Positions 5,030-12,770 of a stretch of DNA of 64,000 bases are shown piece by piece. The stretch is from the NCBI RefSeq assembly GCF_029392675.1, contig NZ_CP113941.1, positions 546,001-610,000 on the forward strand, given 5' to 3'. The first letter of the stretch is position 1. Every line of letters starts with the position of its first letter. A program made the translations under genes and the position numbers. The notes beneath the pieces are model-generated. The model saw only the letters and a program-made list of their open reading frames with translations. It ran no database searches and had not been told where the DNA came from. The DNA is from Lactobacillus sp. ESL0684. GTDB taxonomy: Bacteria; Bacillota; Bacilli; Lactobacillales; Lactobacillaceae.

Positions 5030-5674
5030 ATGGAAACAATTAAAATTCCAACGGCAACGGCCAAGCGGTTACCGCTTTATTATCGGTACTTAATTATTTT
5101 GAATGATAGCGGTAAGGAGAAAGTATCTTCAACTGAATTATCTGAAGCTGTTCAAGTTGATAGTGCTTCAATTCGGCGCGACTTTTCTTATTTCGGCGCA
5201 TTGGGTAAGCGAGGTTATGGTTATGACGTCAAAAGTTTGCTGACCTTTTTTAAGAAAATTTTGAACCAAGACACCTTAACTAATGTGGCATTGGTTGGTG
5301 TTGGTAATTTGGGTCATGCGCTGCTCAACTACAACTTTAAGCGTAGCAATAATATTCGGATTTCTTGTGCCTTTGATATCAATGAAAAAATCACCGGTAA
5401 GATACTGAGTGGTGTACCGGTTTATGGGATGAGTGAGCTAACTAAACAACTCAGTGATCAACAAATTTCGATCGCTATCTTAACTGTGCCAGCTAATACC
5501 GCGCAAAAGACGGCTGATGAAATGATCGAGTCTGGAATCAAAGGAATTATGAATTTCACTCCAATCAGACTTTCGGCACCAAGTGGCGTGCGCATTCAAA
5601 ATGTTGATTTGGCAACAGAATTGCAGACGCTGATTTATTTCTTGGATGCTGATAAGGCTGATGAAGATAAGTAA
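5030..5674 (+). CDS. rex: Rex, NADH/NAD+-sensing transcriptional repressor
   Basis: Rex represses fermentation and respiration genes and leaves DNA when NADH is high. The 214-residue product has the N-terminal winged helix ([16 protein letters not shown] at 6-21; [19 protein letters not shown] at 47-65) and a Rossmann NAD(H)-binding domain with [10 protein letters not shown] at 89-98. GGGAGG lies upstream of the ATG at 5030. Length and order match Bacillus ydiH/rex, which also lies between the tsa cluster and groESL. Confidence 0.97.
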
Positions 5675-5717
5675 TTTGGGTATTTGCCATGGCAAGATTT
5701 CATGATAAAAGCAGAAA

Positions 5718-5744
5718 TTAGCACTTTAACCAAAAAAGTGCTAA
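5718..5744 (+). promoter_or_regulatory. CIRCE operator 1 (HrcA site), upstream of groESL
   Basis: TTAGCACTT-N9-AAGTGCTAA is the HrcA operator with the terminal C/G of each arm replaced symmetrically by T/A. It lies just upstream of the -35 box of the groESL promoter. Confidence 0.88.
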
Positions 5745-5751
5745 TTTTTAC

Positions 5752-5780
5752 TTGCATTCTATTTCAAAAGGGGTTATTAT
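5752..5780 (+). promoter_or_regulatory. groESL sigma-A promoter
   Basis: TTGCAT (5752-5757), a 17-bp spacer and TATTAT (5775-5780), sandwiched between the two CIRCE repeats, a standard layout for HrcA-controlled chaperonin operons. Confidence 0.75.
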
Positions 5781-5792
5781 CATATTTGTAGG

Positions 5793-5819
5793 TTGGCACT
5801 TGGGTAATAAGAGTGCTAA
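5793..5819 (+). promoter_or_regulatory. CIRCE operator 2 (HrcA site) in the groESL leader
   Basis: TTGGCACTT-N9-GAGTGCTAA; the right arm is consensus and the left arm has two changes. It falls at or just after the expected transcription start, where HrcA binding blocks initiation. Confidence 0.9.
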
Positions 5820-5862
5820 TAATTATTAAAAAGTTAAAATTTTGATTATAGGAGGGACAAAC

Positions 5863-6147
5863 GTGTTACAACCAATCGGTGATCGCGTGATCGTAAAAGT
5901 TAAAGAAGAAGAAGAAAAGACTGTTGGCGGTATCGTCCTAGCTTCCAACGCTAAGGAAAAACCAACTGAAGGTGAAGTTGTTGCTATCGGCCAAGGTAAC
6001 TTTGCAGATAATGGCGATAAGATTCCAATGACCGTTAAAAAGGGTGACGTTGTTCTTTACGACAAGTATTCAGGTACTGATGTCAAATATGAAGGCGAAA
6101 AATATTTAGTTCTTCATGAAAAAGATATTTTGGCAATTGTTGAATAG
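5863..6147 (+). CDS. groES: GroES co-chaperonin
   Basis: Ten-kilodalton co-chaperonin that caps the GroEL ring. The 94-residue product begins [11 protein letters not shown] and has the mobile-loop region [14 protein letters not shown]; it ends in the usual [10 protein letters not shown]. The start is GTG at 5863: AGGAGG (5850-5855) sits 7 bases before it. An in-frame TTG at 5842 lies upstream of that binding site and is rejected. The pair with groEL (18 bp gap) is under two CIRCE operators, so heat induction through HrcA is expected. Confidence 0.97.
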
Positions 6148-7794
<1,647 letters not shown>

Positions 7795-7811
7795 TTAAAT
7801 AGTTAATATTT

Positions 7812-7845
7812 TAAAAGAGCCACTCGATTGAGTGGTTCTTTTTGT
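7812..7845 (+). terminator. groESL terminator
   Basis: AAGAGCCACTC, loop GATT, GAGTGGTTCTTTTT: an 11-bp stem with one G-T-type pair and a T tail, 20 bp after groEL. Confidence 0.9.
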
Positions 7846-7856
7846 GTGTAATAAAA

Positions 7857-8693
7857 TTAATTGAATAAATAGGAAAGTTGCTTAATTTGTTGTTTTAATA
7901 CTGTAGCAATATCGCTAGCTCCGATTTCGTTTAATAAATTGATATAATAATCTGTTTGTTGCAGATTTTTATCACAAAAAGCAAGTTCAGTTTTGCATAA
8001 TAGCAACTTTTCAAATTGATTATTCTCTTTTGCAAGTTTGGCAGCTAAAGTTAGTGTCTTTTTTGCGAGAAAAATATCGTGGTTATCTAAATGGATATTA
8101 GCTAAGTTGATTAATGTATTACATTTTAAGCTCTTAAGAAATGGATAGTGATTATCTATTTCGTTTAATATTGTAGTAATAATTTGAATATTAGTTTTGT
8201 TGTCGAAAGCATAAGCAATCATATTTAATAAGGCGATGTCGAATATTGTCAGTGTTTTTATTTTTGCTAAGTAATTGTACCAAATAGGTTGGACCAATTT
8301 TTTAGCTTTCGATAAGTTATGCTGCTGACTAAGTAACAGTTGAGCTTGTAAGACTGTTCTGATTCGCTTAATATCATCGTCATTGTAAATACTTGAACAC
8401 TCCTTTATTAGTGAATTTATTTTCTCTATTTCTGTATTAGAGCTGATGTTAAAGAAATGGTATAAAATTTGTTCTTTTTTTGAAGCTGAGTAATTACGTT
8501 GAATATATTCAAATTCTGTAGCACTAACACCTAAGCGAGAGATGAGCATACTAGCAACTTGTTGAGAAGGATAGGATACACCACTCTCGATTCTTGATAA
8601 TCTGCTACGATCAAAGATTCCCTTAGCTAAATCCGTTTGACTAATAGAAAGTGATGTTCGTAATTTTCGAAAAGTTTGTCCGAAGTCTTCCAT
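7857..8693 (-). CDS. Rgg/MutR-family-like HTH transcriptional regulator
   Basis: A 278-residue regulator with an N-terminal XRE-type helix-turn-helix (FRKLRTSLSISQTDLAKGIF ... RLSRIESGVSYPS) followed by ~210 residues of amphipathic helices as in TPR-like peptide-sensing domains. This architecture and the GVSATEFEYI link after the HTH are typical of the Rgg/GadR/MutR group, several of which respond to short pheromones and control bacteriocin genes. The start at 8693 is chosen because AAAAGGAGT lies 6-7 bases upstream; an earlier in-frame ATG at 8726 precedes that site. It is divergent from the secreted-peptide/ABC locus, which is its likely target (inference). Confidence 0.82.
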   Translation of the reverse strand: MEDFGQTFRKLRTSLSISQTDLAKGIFDRSRLSRIESGVSYPSQQVASMLISRLGVSATEFEYIQRNYSASKKEQILYHFFNISSNTEIEKINSLIKECSSIYNDDDIKRIRTVLQAQLLLSQQHNLSKAKKLVQPIWYNYLAKIKTLTIFDIALLNMIAYAFDNKTNIQIITTILNEIDNHYPFLKSLKCNTLINLANIHLDNHDIFLAKKTLTLAAKLAKENNQFEKLLLCKTELAFCDKNLQQTDYYINLLNEIGASDIATVLKQQIKQLSYLFN

Positions 8694-8714
8694 AGTAATA
8701 CTCCTTTTTATTAC

Positions 8715-8742
8715 ATTATATATCATATAAGACTACTTGCAA
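8715..8742 (-). promoter_or_regulatory. Putative promoter of the Rgg-like regulator
   Basis: On the minus strand TTGCAA (8737-8742) and TATAAT (8715-8720) are separated by 16 bp, ~25 bp ahead of the gene. The rest of the divergent intergenic region (8743-8869) is AT-rich; no clear pheromone-like small ORF was seen there. Confidence 0.55.
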
Positions 8743-8869
8743 ATACAAATAAATAGTGTCAAAAACGCACAGTTATTATTTTTAATACGAGTTATTATAG
8801 ATGCAAGGACATTTACCGATGAGTACTTAGATATTTTGTTCTGTTATATATTATTTTAGTGAATTTATA

Positions 8870-9271
8870 ATGATATTTTTTAAACACAATTTTTGGGGTA
8901 AAGCAATACTAGTAGCCGGAACTGTGGTAGCATTAAGTGGAACTGCAGTTGTGGGAGCTGCAAAAGGTACATGGACTGTTTCTTCTGAAACAGTTAGTGC
9001 ACATGGTGATTGGAGTTCTTATGGTTCTCCTAATACTAAAAAGAACAATTCTAATATAGCATCATTTAACGGTAATTCTATACCTAATCAGTTAGGTTAT
9101 AGTGTAAGACTAATTAATAGTAATGCATCACTAAAATCGGGAAAAACTGGCTTGTATAGAGATCAGACTACATATGGGAGCAACAATACTGAAACAGTTA
9201 ATTATAAGTATTATGCTGATATTCGTTTTAGTTTGATTAGAACGGTGAGCGTAAGTTGGGGGAGTAGTTTT
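8870..9271 (+). CDS. Secreted peptide, bacteriocin-like; open frame runs into the next gene
   Basis: The first 134 codons encode a signal peptide (basic start, hydrophobic AILVAGTVVALSGTAVVGA, likely cleavage near residue 30-31) and a ~100-residue Asn/Ser/Tyr-rich mature part beginning KGTWTVSSETVSAHGDW. It has no cysteines. The C-terminal ETVNYKYYADIRFSLIRTVSVSW resembles small secreted proteins found beside ABC transporters in Firmicutes (DUF2712-like; weak recollection). There is no stop before the downstream membrane-protein ATG: the frame continues in phase through TGG GGG AGT AGT TTT ATG. One extra G in the G5 tract (9258-9262) would put TAG (9265-9267) in frame. The ribosome binding site at 8870 is weak. 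Function is unproven. Confidence 0.55.
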
Positions 9272-10078
9272 ATGCCAAAAAGGACTAAAAAGATAATCAT
9301 CATTGCTATAATATTTTATTTGTTATTGATAACCGCATATACATTTGCTACCTTTAAAGATAAGGCTGGTCTTTTAAAGAGAGGCAATATTTCCGTACAT
9401 GCTTTTTTTGAGCTTCAATCGGGATTAAGTGACAATGTTGTACTTGACGTAGTGCAAATGTTTCTTTTTCCACTACTTGGTTCTGTTTTGTTTATTTATT
9501 TAAAGAATAATAGCATGGTAAATATTCAACAGCGTATTGATTATAGAGGATTTCTTAAACGAGGAATAAGCACTACCTTTTTAGCTGGTGCTGGAATCTC
9601 TTTACTAACCAATATTTATGAAATGGGTTTAATTAACTGGTTTTATTATCCGTTTATTTATGATTTTAACGATCCTTTTTTAAATGGTATCAGACCTGGA
9701 AACTTTACTAACAATGACTTAACGGAAATTATTTTATTTATCATATTTGCAGCGCTTGGTTGGGGTGTTTTTGCTGTTTTTATTTTTAGTGTGGGTTTGT
9801 TTGTTCGGAAAACGGCTTTATACTTTGCAATGGGACCTGTCTTAGGTTTAATGTTAATTTTACTAGTAACTTTGAGTAATATGAGTAGTTGGGCTTGGCG
9901 AGCATTCTATTTTTCTTGGCTTCCGTACACTTTAATCGCGCCTGGTCAGTATACGCTTATAGGTATGGCTCCGCCGATTAGGCCCGGACTATCATTTGTA
10001 ATTGCTGCTATGATTTATTTAGCAGTAGCAGCGCTTTTGATTAGTATCTGGTGTAAAAAACAGAGAAAAGGGGCCTAA
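9272..10078 (+). CDS. Six-TM membrane protein, copy 1 of a tandem duplicated pair
   Basis: A 268-residue polytopic protein with six hydrophobic segments and a basic start (MPKRTKK) and end (KKQRKGA). GGGGGAG lies 7 bases before the ATG at 9272, so this is its own start even though the upstream peptide frame reads into it. It is clearly homologous along its whole length to the next gene (shared FTNNDxxEIxLFII, IFSxGLFVRK, LIAPGQYT and PPIxPGLSF). No enzymatic motif was recognised. Given the ABC ATPase downstream, it is plausibly a permease or immunity-type subunit (inference). Confidence 0.75.
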   Translation: MPKRTKKIIIIAIIFYLLLITAYTFATFKDKAGLLKRGNISVHAFFELQSGLSDNVVLDVVQMFLFPLLGSVLFIYLKNNSMVNIQQRIDYRGFLKRGISTTFLAGAGISLLTNIYEMGLINWFYYPFIYDFNDPFLNGIRPGNFTNNDLTEIILFIIFAALGWGVFAVFIFSVGLFVRKTALYFAMGPVLGLMLILLVTLSNMSSWAWRAFYFSWLPYTLIAPGQYTLIGMAPPIRPGLSFVIAAMIYLAVAALLISIWCKKQRKGA

Positions 10079-10080
10079 TC

Positions 10081-10155
10081 ATGCAAGCTAACATGTTTGG
10101 CAAAAGTTAATTTAACTAGTTTAATTATCGCATTACTGAGATTAATAGTTGGCAT
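10081..10155 (+). pseudogene. Remnant of the 5' end of the third membrane gene (duplication scar)
   Basis: This stretch matches the first ~75 bp of the gene at 10992: ATGCAAGCTA then ACATGTTTGGC, followed by ACTAGTTTAATTATC. One A is missing relative to the intact gene, so translation stops after nine codons. The similarity fades near 10150, where sequence resembling the region before 9272 (AAGTTAGGGAGTAG) resumes. It marks the junction of a ~902-bp tandem duplication. Confidence 0.8.
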
Positions 10156-10173
10156 AAGTTAGGGAGTAGTTTT

Positions 10174-10989
10174 ATGCTGAAAAGAACTAAAAAAATCATA
10201 AGTATAACAATAATATTATATTTTTTTCTAATAACTTGTCATACTTTTGTATCTATTAAAGATGGGCAAGGCATTCTTAGTGCAGGGGGAAATATTTCTG
10301 TTAGTATATTTTTTGAAATGCAAGCTGGGGGTGGTAATGGGTCTGAAATAGTCGATTTGACGATGATGGCAGTATTATCGGTTATTGGATCAGGATTATT
10401 TATTTATATAAAAAATAATAATATGTTTGATAGTGTTCAACAGAGATTGCGCTATAAACGATTCTTAATGAAAAGCGTTATTACTACTTTTTTAGCTGCT
10501 ACTGGATTATCCATATTTACTAATCTGTATGAAATGAGTTTAATTAATTGGTTTTATTTTCCATTTACATATAAAATGAATGATCCCTTTTTGAGATCGC
10601 ATCGACCTAGTAACTTTACAAATAATGATTTCGTAGAAATACTATTATTCATTATACTTGGTGCTGTTGGTTGGGGAATTTTTGCTATTTTTATTTTTAG
10701 TATTGGTTTGTTTGTGCGTAAGAATGCATTTTATATAATTGTTGGTCCGATTATTGGGCTGGTACTAATTTTATTACCAATTTTAGGTAATATACATAGT
10801 CTAATTTGGCGAGTATTTTCGTATTCTTGGTTTGTCTATACTCTAATTGCTCCCGGACAGTATACTTTTATCAGTGAAGCTCCACCGATTAAGCCGGGAC
10901 TATCATTTATAATTGCTGCTATGATTTATTTAGCAGCAGCAGTGCTTTTGATTAGTATCTGGTACAAGAAGCAGCGAAAAGAGGCTTAA
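10174..10989 (+). CDS. Six-TM membrane protein, copy 2 of the tandem duplicated pair
   Basis: A 271-residue paralogue of the preceding protein with the same topology and the same conserved blocks. AGGGAG and the identical spacer TAGTTTT precede the ATG, as in copy 1. The copies differ at many residues, so the duplication is not recent. The next gene starts 2 bp after the stop, so copy 2 is coupled to the intact third membrane protein and ABC ATPase. Likely a transporter or immunity membrane subunit; not matched to a named family. Confidence 0.75.
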   Translation: MLKRTKKIISITIILYFFLITCHTFVSIKDGQGILSAGGNISVSIFFEMQAGGGNGSEIVDLTMMAVLSVIGSGLFIYIKNNNMFDSVQQRLRYKRFLMKSVITTFLAATGLSIFTNLYEMSLINWFYFPFTYKMNDPFLRSHRPSNFTNNDFVEILLFIILGAVGWGIFAIFIFSIGLFVRKNAFYIIVGPIIGLVLILLPILGNIHSLIWRVFSYSWFVYTLIAPGQYTFISEAPPIKPGLSFIIAAMIYLAAAVLLISIWYKKQRKEA

Positions 10990-10991
10990 TC

Positions 10992-11576
10992 ATGCAAGCT
11001 AAACATGTTTGGCGAAAGCTAAGCTTAACTAGTTTAATTATCACGTTGCTTGGCTTATGGGGTGGTTGGTATTTAACTACACAAAGTGAGCCTGCCACGA
11101 TGGAATTACCCAATGCCTATCTTAATGCCAATTTAGTATCGCTGTACTTGCAGCCAGCAGTCTTAATTTTAATTTACAACCAGATTTTAACTTTTCGTAA
11201 AATCAACTTATTGGTTGGCGTGCGGCAATGGACTAATAAGATGATTGCCCGTTTGTTAATCTTGGCAACGCTAGATTGTCTACTCTTCTGTGCTGGACTG
11301 ATAATTCCTTATCTGATGACTGATTTTCCATTCTTTCGTAATGGTAGCCCTCTGCTGGGTACGGCATTACTGCTGTTACATGTTGCGGTGCTGATCTTAA
11401 TGGCTTGGCTACTAGTTGGTGCCTATCAAATGCGCTATCCGCAATTATTGTTATTCATCGTTATTATTATCGATTTGGTGTATCATTTCTATTTTGAAAA
11501 GCAGGCTTTGATACTGTATAGTCCGCTATATGATCCACTATACCGAGCAGTTCATCGGATTTATGGTGGATATTAA
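10992..11576 (+). CDS. Integral membrane protein, ABC-2-like permease candidate
   Basis: A 194-residue protein with about five hydrophobic segments (near residues 14-32, 48-68, 85-107, 122-142 and 150-168). GAGG lies 8 bases before the ATG at 10992. It stands between the duplicated membrane proteins and an ABC ATPase gene 12 bp downstream, so it is a candidate transmembrane subunit of the same transporter. No family motif was recognised. Its first ~75 bp also occur as a decayed copy at 10081. Confidence 0.72.
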   Translation: MQAKHVWRKLSLTSLIITLLGLWGGWYLTTQSEPATMELPNAYLNANLVSLYLQPAVLILIYNQILTFRKINLLVGVRQWTNKMIARLLILATLDCLLFCAGLIIPYLMTDFPFFRNGSPLLGTALLLLHVAVLILMAWLLVGAYQMRYPQLLLFIVIIIDLVYHFYFEKQALILYSPLYDPLYRAVHRIYGGY

Positions 11577-11588
11577 TGGAGAATTATT

Positions 11589-12194
11589 ATGTTAGAAATT
11601 AAACAGATAAAAAAGTCATTTGGTCGCAAGCAAGTTTTACAAGATGTGACACTATCCGCTCAAGCTGGTGAGTTGATTCATATTTCAGGAATTAATGGCT
11701 CAGGCAAGTCAACGATCTTTAAAATTGTAACTGGTCTGCTAAAGCCCGATAGTGGCACAGTCAAGTTGGGACAAAACGATGTTATTGGCGCCTTAATTGA
11801 GAATCCCGGTTTTCTGGAATATGAATCCGCAATGACCAATCTTCAGTTCTTGGCTAATCTTAACCATAATTTTAATGAAGCAAAAGTTAGCGAATTACTG
11901 CAATATTTCGAACTAGATCCAGCGGATAATCAAGCTATTGCTAAGTATTCGGTTGGTATGCGGCAAAAAGTGGGTATTATTCAAGCAGTTATGGAAGATC
12001 AAAATATTATTTTGCTTGATGAGCCGACTCGCGGGATTGATCAAGCAAGTATTAGACAATTTGCTAATTTGCTAATCAAACTTAAGCAAGAGAATAAAAC
12101 GGTAATTGTTGCTAGTCATGACCGAATTGCCGAAATTAAATATGATCGCCGTTTAAATTTGCAGGGCGGTGTACTTAGTGATGAAGATGAATAA
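11589..12194 (+). CDS. ABC transporter ATP-binding protein of the peptide locus
   Basis: A compact 201-residue nucleotide-binding subunit with Walker A GINGSGKST, signature YSVGMRQKVGI, Walker B IILLDEPTRGID and a switch His in VIVASHDR. The short length and SVGMRQ signature are typical of exporters related to lantibiotic and ABC-2 multidrug systems. GGAG lies ahead of the ATG. It presumably energises the flanking membrane proteins (10174, 10992, 12181). The stop overlaps the start of the next gene, indicating translational coupling. Confidence 0.9.
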   Translation: MLEIKQIKKSFGRKQVLQDVTLSAQAGELIHISGINGSGKSTIFKIVTGLLKPDSGTVKLGQNDVIGALIENPGFLEYESAMTNLQFLANLNHNFNEAKVSELLQYFELDPADNQAIAKYSVGMRQKVGIIQAVMEDQNIILLDEPTRGIDQASIRQFANLLIKLKQENKTVIVASHDRIAEIKYDRRLNLQGGVLSDEDE

Positions 12195-12684
12195 GAAGCG
12201 AATCTTTCTGGCTTATGCTGCTGTCAGTGCTTTGTTAGTCTGTTTAGCGCGTGTGAATTGGTCTAGCTATCTATCTGCTGCCAAGTTATGGCAGATTAAT
12301 TTTGCCTGGATTACTAAGCCGATGGTATTTGCCTTATTAGCGACTAACTTGGTTTTCTTTGATTCTCTAGCAGTTTGGTTGCCACGAAGTGGGCTACATA
12401 ATATTAGTCCGCTAATGCAGGTTCGCAAACCGACTTTTAAACAACTAATAAAAAATATTGCCCCACAGGTTTGGCAATACTTAGTCATCTTCTTGTTGGT
12501 ACATGTATTTGCCTTTGACTACGGTAACTGGGGTTATTCATTATTAACGTTGCTAGGTTTGAGTCTGCTATGGCTAGCGTGTACTTTTTGTCCGGTTTAT
12601 CATTGGCCAGTCGGAGTGCAAAATTTATTGGTCATGATAGGCTTTTTTGGAGTTAGGCTAGCTCTGTGTTATTGGATAATTTAA
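12181..12684 (+). CDS. Membrane protein, last gene of the ABC locus
   Basis: A protein of about 167 residues with four hydrophobic segments and short loops, probably another transmembrane or accessory subunit. It overlaps the ATPase gene by 14 bp. GTG codons at 12169 and 12178 are in frame, but ATG 12181 or 12187 fits better, with GGCGGTG ~10 bases upstream. No known family recognised. A terminator follows at 12726. Confidence 0.65.
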   Translation: MKMNKKRIFLAYAAVSALLVCLARVNWSSYLSAAKLWQINFAWITKPMVFALLATNLVFFDSLAVWLPRSGLHNISPLMQVRKPTFKQLIKNIAPQVWQYLVIFLLVHVFAFDYGNWGYSLLTLLGLSLLWLACTFCPVYHWPVGVQNLLVMIGFFGVRLALCYWII

Positions 12685-12725
12685 TTAATTTATTATGGTT
12701 TGTAAATAGATAATTAAATAATTTT

Positions 12726-12757
12726 AAAAAATTGCTTGTGATGAGCAATTTTTTGTT
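12726..12757 (+). terminator. Terminator of the peptide/ABC locus
   Basis: AAAAAATTGCT, loop TGTGATG, AGCAATTTTTT: an 11-bp symmetrical stem with a T tail, 41 bp after the last gene. Confidence 0.85.
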
Positions 12758-12770
12758 TTTGGTAATTTCT

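What the first reader, a model, noticed from the sequence alone, without database searches (positions are those of the whole stretch)
7857..12757. Candidate undescribed peptide/ABC locus governed by an Rgg/MutR-like regulator
The regulator is divergent from a unit encoding a signal-peptide-bearing ~100-residue Asn/Ser/Tyr-rich peptide, a duplicated six-TM protein, a further membrane protein, a compact ABC ATPase and a last membrane protein, ending at a terminator. This resembles bacteriocin or pheromone cassettes, but the secreted peptide has no Cys and no double-Gly leader, and the membrane proteins match no family I recognise. Functional linkage is inferred from gene order.
Basis: partly seen in the sequence, partly recalled or inferred. 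Interest (0 to 1): 0.7.

Follow-up and report, generated by a model that had tools for sequence, protein, structure and literature searches.

The report
Bacteriocin-like immunity locus, toxin gene decayed
A Lactobacillus gene cluster belongs to a recurring but apparently unnamed family in which a small secreted protein, probably a weapon against rival bacteria, travels with a membrane pump that probably protects its owner; in this genome the weapon gene looks broken while the pump genes look intact.

Summary
The genes described are there, with one important correction. The 'peptide' is not a separate gene: its frame (8870) runs without a stop into the first six-TM protein (ATG 9272), giving one 402-codon ORF. 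A survey shows that peptide, 6TM, 194-aa and ABC genes form a real module in Lactobacillaceae and two other Lactobacillales loci, often with a ~170-aa membrane protein. I mapped 49 loci: 46 carry near full-length 6TM, 22 carry the peptide (14 intact, 8 damaged, the window among the damaged). The 13 intact peptides measured are 104-107 residues from the first conserved Trp and Cys-free, with a Sec-type signal; one is confidently predicted as a beta sandwich. The 6TM protein resembles ABC-2 permeases. No Pfam or NCBIfam model recognises peptide or membrane proteins. Recurrent loss of the peptide with retention of the transporter, an Rgg-like regulator within Lactobacillus, and two neighbouring lactococcin-972-like clusters fit a bacteriocin plus ABC-2 immunity pump. 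It works like lactococcin 972 but fails that family's sequence and partner tests. The window copy is probably an immunity-type remnant carrying two diverged permease alleles. No killing or protection has been shown. Verdict: new variant of a known kind.

The parts
7857..8726 (-). Rgg-like HTH regulator, 289 aa, divergent from the unit
   Evidence: HTH_3 2.8e-9; TIGR01716 RGG_Cterm 2.2e-6 but below cut-off; orthologues at the same groEL site in L062-L065 at E 4e-113 to 2e-116
8755..8771 (.). degenerate half of a palindrome (TGTGCG-N5-CGCACA in same-site relatives): candidate operator
   Evidence: exact pattern once in each of four same-site genomes: L062, L063, L064 (= L097), L065 (= L096); 55-56 bp from the regulator start in L096 and L097; the window keeps only one arm
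8870..9271 (+). peptide-like segment: signal peptide plus most of the beta-sandwich domain; no stop, open into the 6TM gene; conserved C-terminus lost
   Evidence: (own 1.3e-85; best relative 4.1e-30); homology to L096 ends near 9227 and resumes at 9272
9272..10078 (+). six-TM protein A (268 aa), predicted ABC-2-type permease; GGGGGAG upstream of its ATG
10079..10135 (+). remnant of the 5' end of the 194-aa gene left by the duplication
   Evidence: alignment; identity by window
10174..10989 (+). six-TM protein B (271 aa), 61% identical to A, closer than A to the permeases of peptide-less L062 and L067
10992..11576 (+). membrane protein M194 (194 aa, 5 hydrophobic segments)
11589..12194 (+). 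ABC ATPase, 201 aa; Walker A, signature, Walker B and H-loop present
   Evidence: PF00005 2.6e-24; best NCBIfam TIGR03740 lantibiotic protection ABC 1.9e-38, below its cut-off; motifs
12169..12684 (+). membrane protein M171 (GTG start overlapping the ABC gene, 5 hydrophobic segments)
12725..12762 (+). terminator-like hairpin with T-run

Best explanation
The module encodes a Sec-secreted, unmodified beta-sandwich bacteriocin-like protein of about 105 residues (PEP) and an ABC-2-type transporter (6TM permease, ABC ATPase, M194, often M171) that protects the producer, plausibly by removing the protein or its bound target from the cell surface. In part of Lactobacillus an adjacent Rgg-like regulator probably controls it. 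In the window the PEP gene has decayed: no ribosome-binding site like its relatives', half an operator, a shortened 3' end and loss of the stop, so that it is fused in frame to permease A. The transporter genes are intact, so this copy most likely gives immunity only, with two diverged permease alleles on one ATPase. Shown here: gene content, synteny, strong purifying selection on PEP in one pair and on most transporter genes in two pairs, recurrent PEP loss, a confident fold for one PEP and a moderate one for the permease. Inferred: antibacterial activity, immunity, regulation.
For: Linkage: PEP in 12 of 75 genus genomes, of which 11 have 6TM and the twelfth is a 33-residue remnant with a stop; 8 of 251 family genomes, all 8 with 6TM, while 15 of 251 have 6TM. 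Asymmetry: of 49 mapped loci 46 have near full-length 6TM and 22 have PEP, 14 intact and 8 damaged. A roughly 400-bp deletion removes PEP in L028 against sister L029, whose four transporter proteins are 98-99% identical. Secreted fold: signal peptide, then seven strands, block pLDDT 83-97 from residue 31 of the L096 protein. Permease: Foldseek ranks 1-15 are all ABC-2, ABCG or ABCA transporters. The ATPase's best NCBIfam model is a lantibiotic protection ATPase. dN/dS of PEP 0.05 in L085/L087. Lactococcin-972-like clusters next to the module in L081 and L086, all scores below the curated cut-offs. Precedent: streptococcin B, a Sec-type beta-sandwich bacteriocin beside a ComR-type regulator; some strains lack the functional peptide but have the immunity genes (PMC11796350, passages).
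Against: No activity data. PEP has no detectable sequence relation to the lactococcin-972-like protein of L081 and no Foldseek match at E<=0.001. The 6TM model is of moderate confidence (pLDDT 68.4, best E 0.065). dN/dS of PEP in L063/L064 is 0.46 and of 6TM in L028/L029 0.73, both on few changes. Distances of PEP correlate with those of all transporter genes; the extra PEP-6TM signal is modest (partial r 0.38). [quoted passage not shown] Some damaged PEP genes lie in draft genomes and could include assembly errors; no second strain of the window's species was examined.
Confidence: 0.6

Rival explanations
1. The ABC module is a general cell-envelope or antimicrobial-peptide resistance pump, and PEP is a secreted accessory (sensor, wall-binding or decoy protein), not a toxin.
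For: 24 of the 46 loci with near full-length 6TM have no PEP; PEP's weak Foldseek matches include carbohydrate-binding modules.
Against: PEP was found without 6TM only once, as a remnant, and is damaged in 8 of 22 copies, as expected of a costly toxin; neighbouring lactococcin-972-like clusters.
Confidence: 0.22
2. The ABC transporter exports PEP or helps release it, instead of giving immunity.
For: Tight gene linkage and ABC-2 exporter-like fold.
Against: PEP carries a signal-peptide-like N-terminus (hydrophobic segment 9-32 in the window copy; A-x-A-like sites seen by eye), so Sec should suffice; lactococcin-972-like proteins are thought to go by Sec (PMC11796350).
Confidence: 0.1
3. PEP is a pheromone or signal for the Rgg-like regulator.
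For: Regulator in 8 of 11 Lactobacillus loci with PEP.
Against: Known Rgg ligands are short hydrophobic peptides (recalled); PEP is predicted as a folded domain of about 105 residues; no such regulator in any of 18 loci outside the genus, 11 of which have PEP.
Confidence: 0.05
4. In the window the fusion is functional: an extracellular PEP domain anchored through permease A.
For: The frame is open over 402 codons; dN/dS 0.16 for PEP and 0.19 for permease A against L096, although with saturated dS (1.56, 1.66), so this says little about recent history.
Against: The conserved C-terminal strand is missing, the relatives' ribosome-binding site is absent, and an internal start with its own GGGGGAG precedes permease A. 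A Sec-exported N-terminus would probably disturb the usual ABC-2 topology (inference).
Confidence: 0.06

Closest known systems
Lactococcin 972 family (lcn972-orf2-orf3; streptococcin B scbABC; mediterrocin)
   Same: Small Sec-type secreted protein of beta-sandwich type without Cys bridges, followed by membrane protein and ABC genes thought to give immunity; may sit beside a ComR-type regulator; strains without a functional peptide but with the immunity genes are reported (PMC4055356, PMC8538875, PMC11796350, PMC12345188, passages).
   Different: No match to PF09683 or TIGR01653; no DUF1430/bact_immun_7tm protein; mature size about 105 against 66 (recalled) to 89 (mediterrocin); three smaller membrane proteins instead of one of about 700 aa (691 and 731 aa in L086 and L081).
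LanFEG-type lantibiotic immunity ABC transporters
   Same: ABC-2-like permease plus separate small ATPase; the ATPase's best NCBIfam model is TIGR03740.
   Different: Score 132.4 against a cut-off of 309.75; the membrane proteins match no NCBIfam model; no lanthionine machinery in the module and no Cys in the peptide.
PmtCD and NosFY ABC-2 transporters
   Same: Top Foldseek matches of permease A.
   Different: TM-scores 0.40-0.54 and 10-13% identity among the first ten ranks, no E<=0.001; different gene contexts.
BLB8/JUQZ-1 family (NF053514), Brevibacillus bacteriocin-like proteins
   Same: About 12 kDa, signal peptide (PMC11747845, passages).
   Different: Only 1 of 17 PEP members matches, at E 0.12: not significant.

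Membership tests
Lactococcin 972 family bacteriocins | PF09683 / TIGR01653 sequence signature | tested here: not met
   No such hit at E<=1 for 17 members in NCBIfam, nor for the window segment; no hit at E<=0.5 for three relatives in Pfam
Lactococcin 972 family bacteriocins | Sec signal peptide, Cys-free mature protein | tested here: met
   Hydrophobic N-terminus and A-x-A-like site by eye (no signal-peptide program was run); 0 Cys in 14 of 15 mature sequences, the exception being damaged L041
Lactococcin 972 family bacteriocins | Beta-sandwich fold like 2LGN | tested here: inconclusive
   Seven-strand beta model at high confidence; 2LGN is not among the 50 shown of 1083 Foldseek matches, and a second aligner was not available
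Lactococcin 972 family bacteriocins | Partner DUF1430 / TIGR01654 membrane protein and TIGR03608 ATPase | tested here: not met
   No TIGR01654 or PF07242 match in the module's membrane proteins (17 six-TM members); TIGR03608 at 103.8 bits against a cut-off of 254.85
Lactococcin 972 family bacteriocins | Binds lipid II, inhibits septum formation | not testable with these tools
   needs biochemistry
LanFEG immunity transporters | Over-cut-off match to TIGR03740 and to the LanE/LanG permease models (that such models are in the library is recalled) | tested here: not met
   for the window proteins; for 17 six-TM members
ABC-2 (type V) ABC transporters | Six-TM permease of ABC-2 fold paired with an ABC ATPase | tested here: inconclusive
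   Foldseek ranks 1-15 are all ABC-2-type, prob up to 0.99, but E>=0.065; ATPase motifs intact
Rgg/MutR regulators | HTH plus Rgg C-terminal domain over cut-off (TIGR01716) | tested here: not met
   27.5 bits against 36.9 for the window protein; of three regulators of other loci tested, L098 passes at 37.7, L080 and L100 do not (26.8, 27.4)

The most novel reading that the evidence does not exclude
An undescribed family of secreted beta-sandwich bacteriocins whose specificity is carried by a peptide/six-TM-permease pair that can be stacked or exchanged upstream of a shared M194-ABC-M171 core. Tandem permeases occur in three separate loci (window A/B, L085, remnants in Melissococcus L136), while no second ATPase of the same type was seen in the maps. 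The window would record such a stack: permease A is nearest to same-site peptide-bearing relatives, permease B to two peptide-less ones, with exceptions among more distant relatives, and the toxin has gone.
Probability: 0.3. Interest if true: 0.72.

Novelty: new variant of a known kind. Interest (0 to 1): 0.55.

Why it matters
It would add an unannotated class of Sec-secreted, unmodified protein bacteriocins with its own ABC-2 immunity system to lactic acid bacteria, including a honey-bee bacterium (M. plutonius, source Apis mellifera) and L. hominis and L. jensenii (human association recalled). The protein-family libraries searched recognise only the ATPase and the HTH of the regulator, so genome mining would overlook it. 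The many transporter-only copies give a natural test of who resists whom in these communities.

Tried and rejected
Lactococcin 972 membership was tested and rejected by sequence. PEP against the 138-aa secreted protein of the other cassette in L038: no relation. PEP in solved structures by sequence: 0. Phage or viral origin: no match in phages, none of 60 candidate stretches confirmed in viral contigs, PHROGs 0 for the four module proteins given. Defence system: PADLOC matches only the ATPase and HTH among the module's proteins. JUQZ-1/BLB8 lead: E 0.12 in 1 of 17, 0 of 21 genomes over cut-off and 1 of 21 below it. A short Rgg pheromone ORF was not searched for. PEP beyond Lactobacillales: 1 of 299 phylum genomes, the own one. 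Mirror-tree: PEP-6TM r 0.68, PEP-M194 0.64, PEP-ABC 0.65, so only weakly specific (15 loci, including L064 and L041, whose PEP is damaged, and leaving out L085 as near L087). The idea that an unclassified bacteriocin ORF of an M. plutonius paper is PEP: not supported (see the full report).
Full report
WHAT IS IN THE WINDOW. The window lies in a one-contig 1.89-Mb genome whose genus, by named records of the same contigs, is Lactobacillus. Between groEL and a Phd/RelE-like pair, with mutS further on, lies: regulator 7857-8726(-); peptide-like segment from 8870; six-TM proteins A (9272-10078) and B (10174-10989); M194 (10992-11576); ABC ATPase (11589-12194); M171 (12169-12684, GTG start, overlapping); and a terminator-like hairpin 12725-12762.

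THE MODULE IS REAL. With the six-TM protein as query, 15 of 251 family genomes and 30 of 75 genus genomes match. The peptide profile matches 12 of 75 genus genomes, 8 of 251 family genomes, 3 of 295 order genomes and 1 of 299 phylum genomes, the own one; these sets overlap in part. I fetched the neighbourhoods of all 15 non-own family matches (14 genomes), of all 31 non-own genus matches (30 regions, 29 genomes), one locus from another family of the order, one named MAG, one plasmid, and the own locus: 49 loci. Six-TM covers its profile nearly fully in 46 of 49; L088 and L090 hold fragments and L091 no match. M194 covers at least 80% of its profile in 46 of 49, with a partial match in L089. 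An ABC match lies within 2.5 kb in 47 of 49. M171 is found in 30 of 49 by that profile, plus L095 by another. PEP is found in 22 of 49. The order PEP-6TM-M194-ABC-M171 held in the maps that I read, apart from absent genes, extra permeases (window, L085, L136) and L102, where M194 and 6TM are exchanged.

THE PEPTIDE FAMILY. Aligned members share a signal-peptide-like N-terminus, then W(T/S)...ASFNGD..PN..GY...LIN...S..GL..D.T...NN......YYADVRS...EPN...V.LHFS(A/S)D (consensus). In 15 loci the part from the first conserved Trp is 104-107 residues in 14 and 94 in the damaged L041; pI is 5.4-10.2, above 8 in 12 of 15; Cys is 0 in 14 of 15, L041 being the exception. The AlphaFold model of the L096 member, built on 8 sequences, has seven strands with block pLDDT 83-97 after the signal peptide; two of its five models had mean pLDDT of only 55.1 and 49.7. 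Foldseek against PDB gave 0 matches at E<=0.001; the best are weak beta-sandwich or jelly-roll matches, query TM-score up to 0.46 among the 50 shown. Pfam and NCBIfam have no significant model for it. In pair L085/L087 PEP has dN 0.056 and dS 1.19; in L063/L064 dN 0.018 and dS 0.039, few changes.

THE TRANSPORTER. The six-TM model (pLDDT 68.4) matches ABC-2-type transporters at ranks 1-15 (PmtCD, NosFY, ABCG, ABCA; E 0.065-0.93), none at E<=0.001. The ATPase has the four motifs looked for; its best NCBIfam model is the lantibiotic protection ATPase, below cut-off. No library searched names the membrane proteins. dN/dS of 6TM, M194 and ABC is 0.05-0.15 in L063/L064 and L085/L087; in L028/L029, which hardly differ, 6TM gives 0.73.

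TOXIN LOST, PUMP KEPT. Of 22 loci with PEP, 14 have a full-length open frame and 8 are damaged: window, L027, L032, L033, L041, L063, L064, L089. L063 and L064 have stops in the signal-peptide part only. L028 lacks about 400 bp that hold PEP in its sister L029, with transporter proteins 98-99% identical. G278 holds a 33-residue PEP remnant and no 6TM match. On Melissococcus plasmids, 3 records have PEP and 4 have 6TM; the strain DAT561 record has a 6TM match and no PEP match. This is the pattern expected of toxin and immunity, where immunity can stand alone; orphan ABC immunity genes are known in enterococci (PMC10598978, passages). Results against: 24 of 46 loci with near full-length 6TM have no PEP, so the transporter may have a life of its own, and draft or contaminated assemblies (L089 comes from one) may add false damage.

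THE WINDOW COPY. Relative to L096 at the same groEL site, homology of PEP ends near 9227 and resumes at the ATG 9272: 44 bp lie between, against 127 in L096, whose 127 bp include the end of PEP, its stop and a spacer. The regulator-PEP interval is 143 bp against 255 in L096 and lacks the AGGAGG seen in L096, L097 and L063. The palindrome TGTGCG-N5-CGCACA (searched as TGTGCGNAAAACGCACA) occurs exactly once in each of the four same-site genomes (L062, L063, L064 = L097, L065 = L096) and not in the window within 3 mismatches, where one arm remains at 8755-8771. Permease A keeps its own GGGGGAG. A and B are 61% identical. Their DNA identity is 0.87-0.90 over A positions 9967-10086 and 0.77 over 10087-10140, against 0.43-0.78 elsewhere. 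A is closer than B to the permeases of peptide-bearing L063, L064 and L065 (57.7, 56.6, 56.2% against 53.9, 53.2, 53.1), but also of peptide-less L066 (55.2 against 52.8) and L076 (45.7 against 42.4). B is closer to peptide-less L062 and L067 (60.7 and 59.0 against 56.2 and 52.6), but also slightly to peptide-bearing L068 (46.9 against 44.9). I read this as recombination between two alleles, followed by decay of the peptide; it is an inference from these identities, and no tree was built. Tandem permeases also occur in L085 (65% identical, PEP between them) and, as remnants, in L136.

REGULATOR. In the genus loci a regulator of this type lies in the fetched region in 8 of 11 loci with PEP and 4 of 20 without (Fisher P 0.007; loci are related, and the profile was built partly from these regulators, so this is descriptive). 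Outside the genus it was found in 0 of 18 loci.

RELATION TO KNOWN SYSTEMS. In L081 and L086 the module lies next to lactococcin-972-like clusters (TIGR01654 E 1.5e-19 and 3.8e-20; in L081 also TIGR01653 7.6e-5 and TIGR03608 5.4e-69; all below the curated cut-offs); both these copies lack PEP. Lactococcin 972 binds lipid II and has two genes that could encode an ABC transporter involved in immunity (PMC4055356, passages); the family is described as beta-sandwich and thought to be Sec-secreted, and streptococcin B sits beside a ComR-type regulator, with some strains lacking the functional peptide (PMC11796350, passages). The present module works like these by its anatomy, but fails the sequence and partner tests for membership. 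An M. plutonius study reports putative bacteriocin genes, among them an unclassified ORF3 that, as I read the passage, occurs in sequence types other than ST3 and ST7 and not in DAT561 (PMC6116112, passages). PEP is present in strain S1, listed there as ST3, so the two do not readily agree; the supplement was not readable, and an earlier flag for this plasmid gene cannot be excluded. Searches of the open-access library showed me no description of this family (listings, plus passages of eight papers); subscription papers and preprints are not held.

HOW SURE. Module and secreted peptide family: very likely. Bacteriocin plus immunity: about 0.6, inferred. Window copy without a functional free peptide: about 0.85, from the missing stop, C-terminus and ribosome-binding site. 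Permease stacking as specificity exchange: about 0.3.

Noticed in passing
L038:10561-14346 (-): A second kind of cassette: a 138-aa secreted-looking protein followed by three membrane proteins, an ABC ATPase and a 171-aa protein, close to the module; relatives of the secreted protein in 12 of 201 Lactobacillaceae genomes, no family over cut-off. A set of similar layout without such a peptide lies downstream of the module in L063 and L064/L097.
   Followed up: partly
L136 (Melissococcus plutonius pMP1), 5093-8958: The module sits on a plasmid, its peptide and membrane genes annotated as hypothetical proteins, with an intact peptide, a split M171 and remnants of an older peptide/permease pair upstream.
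   Followed up: partly
window:12834-13483: Phd/YefM-like antitoxin and RelE-like toxin pair directly downstream.
   Followed up: no
L076:6110-8746 and L062:6011-7995: Three regulators or regulator pieces in a row beside peptide-less copies of the module, suggesting repeated duplication of the regulator.
   Followed up: no
L069-L075, L077, L078: Nine related genus loci carry 6TM-M194-ABC without peptide or M171 between the same neighbouring genes: a fixed transporter-only form.
   Followed up: partly
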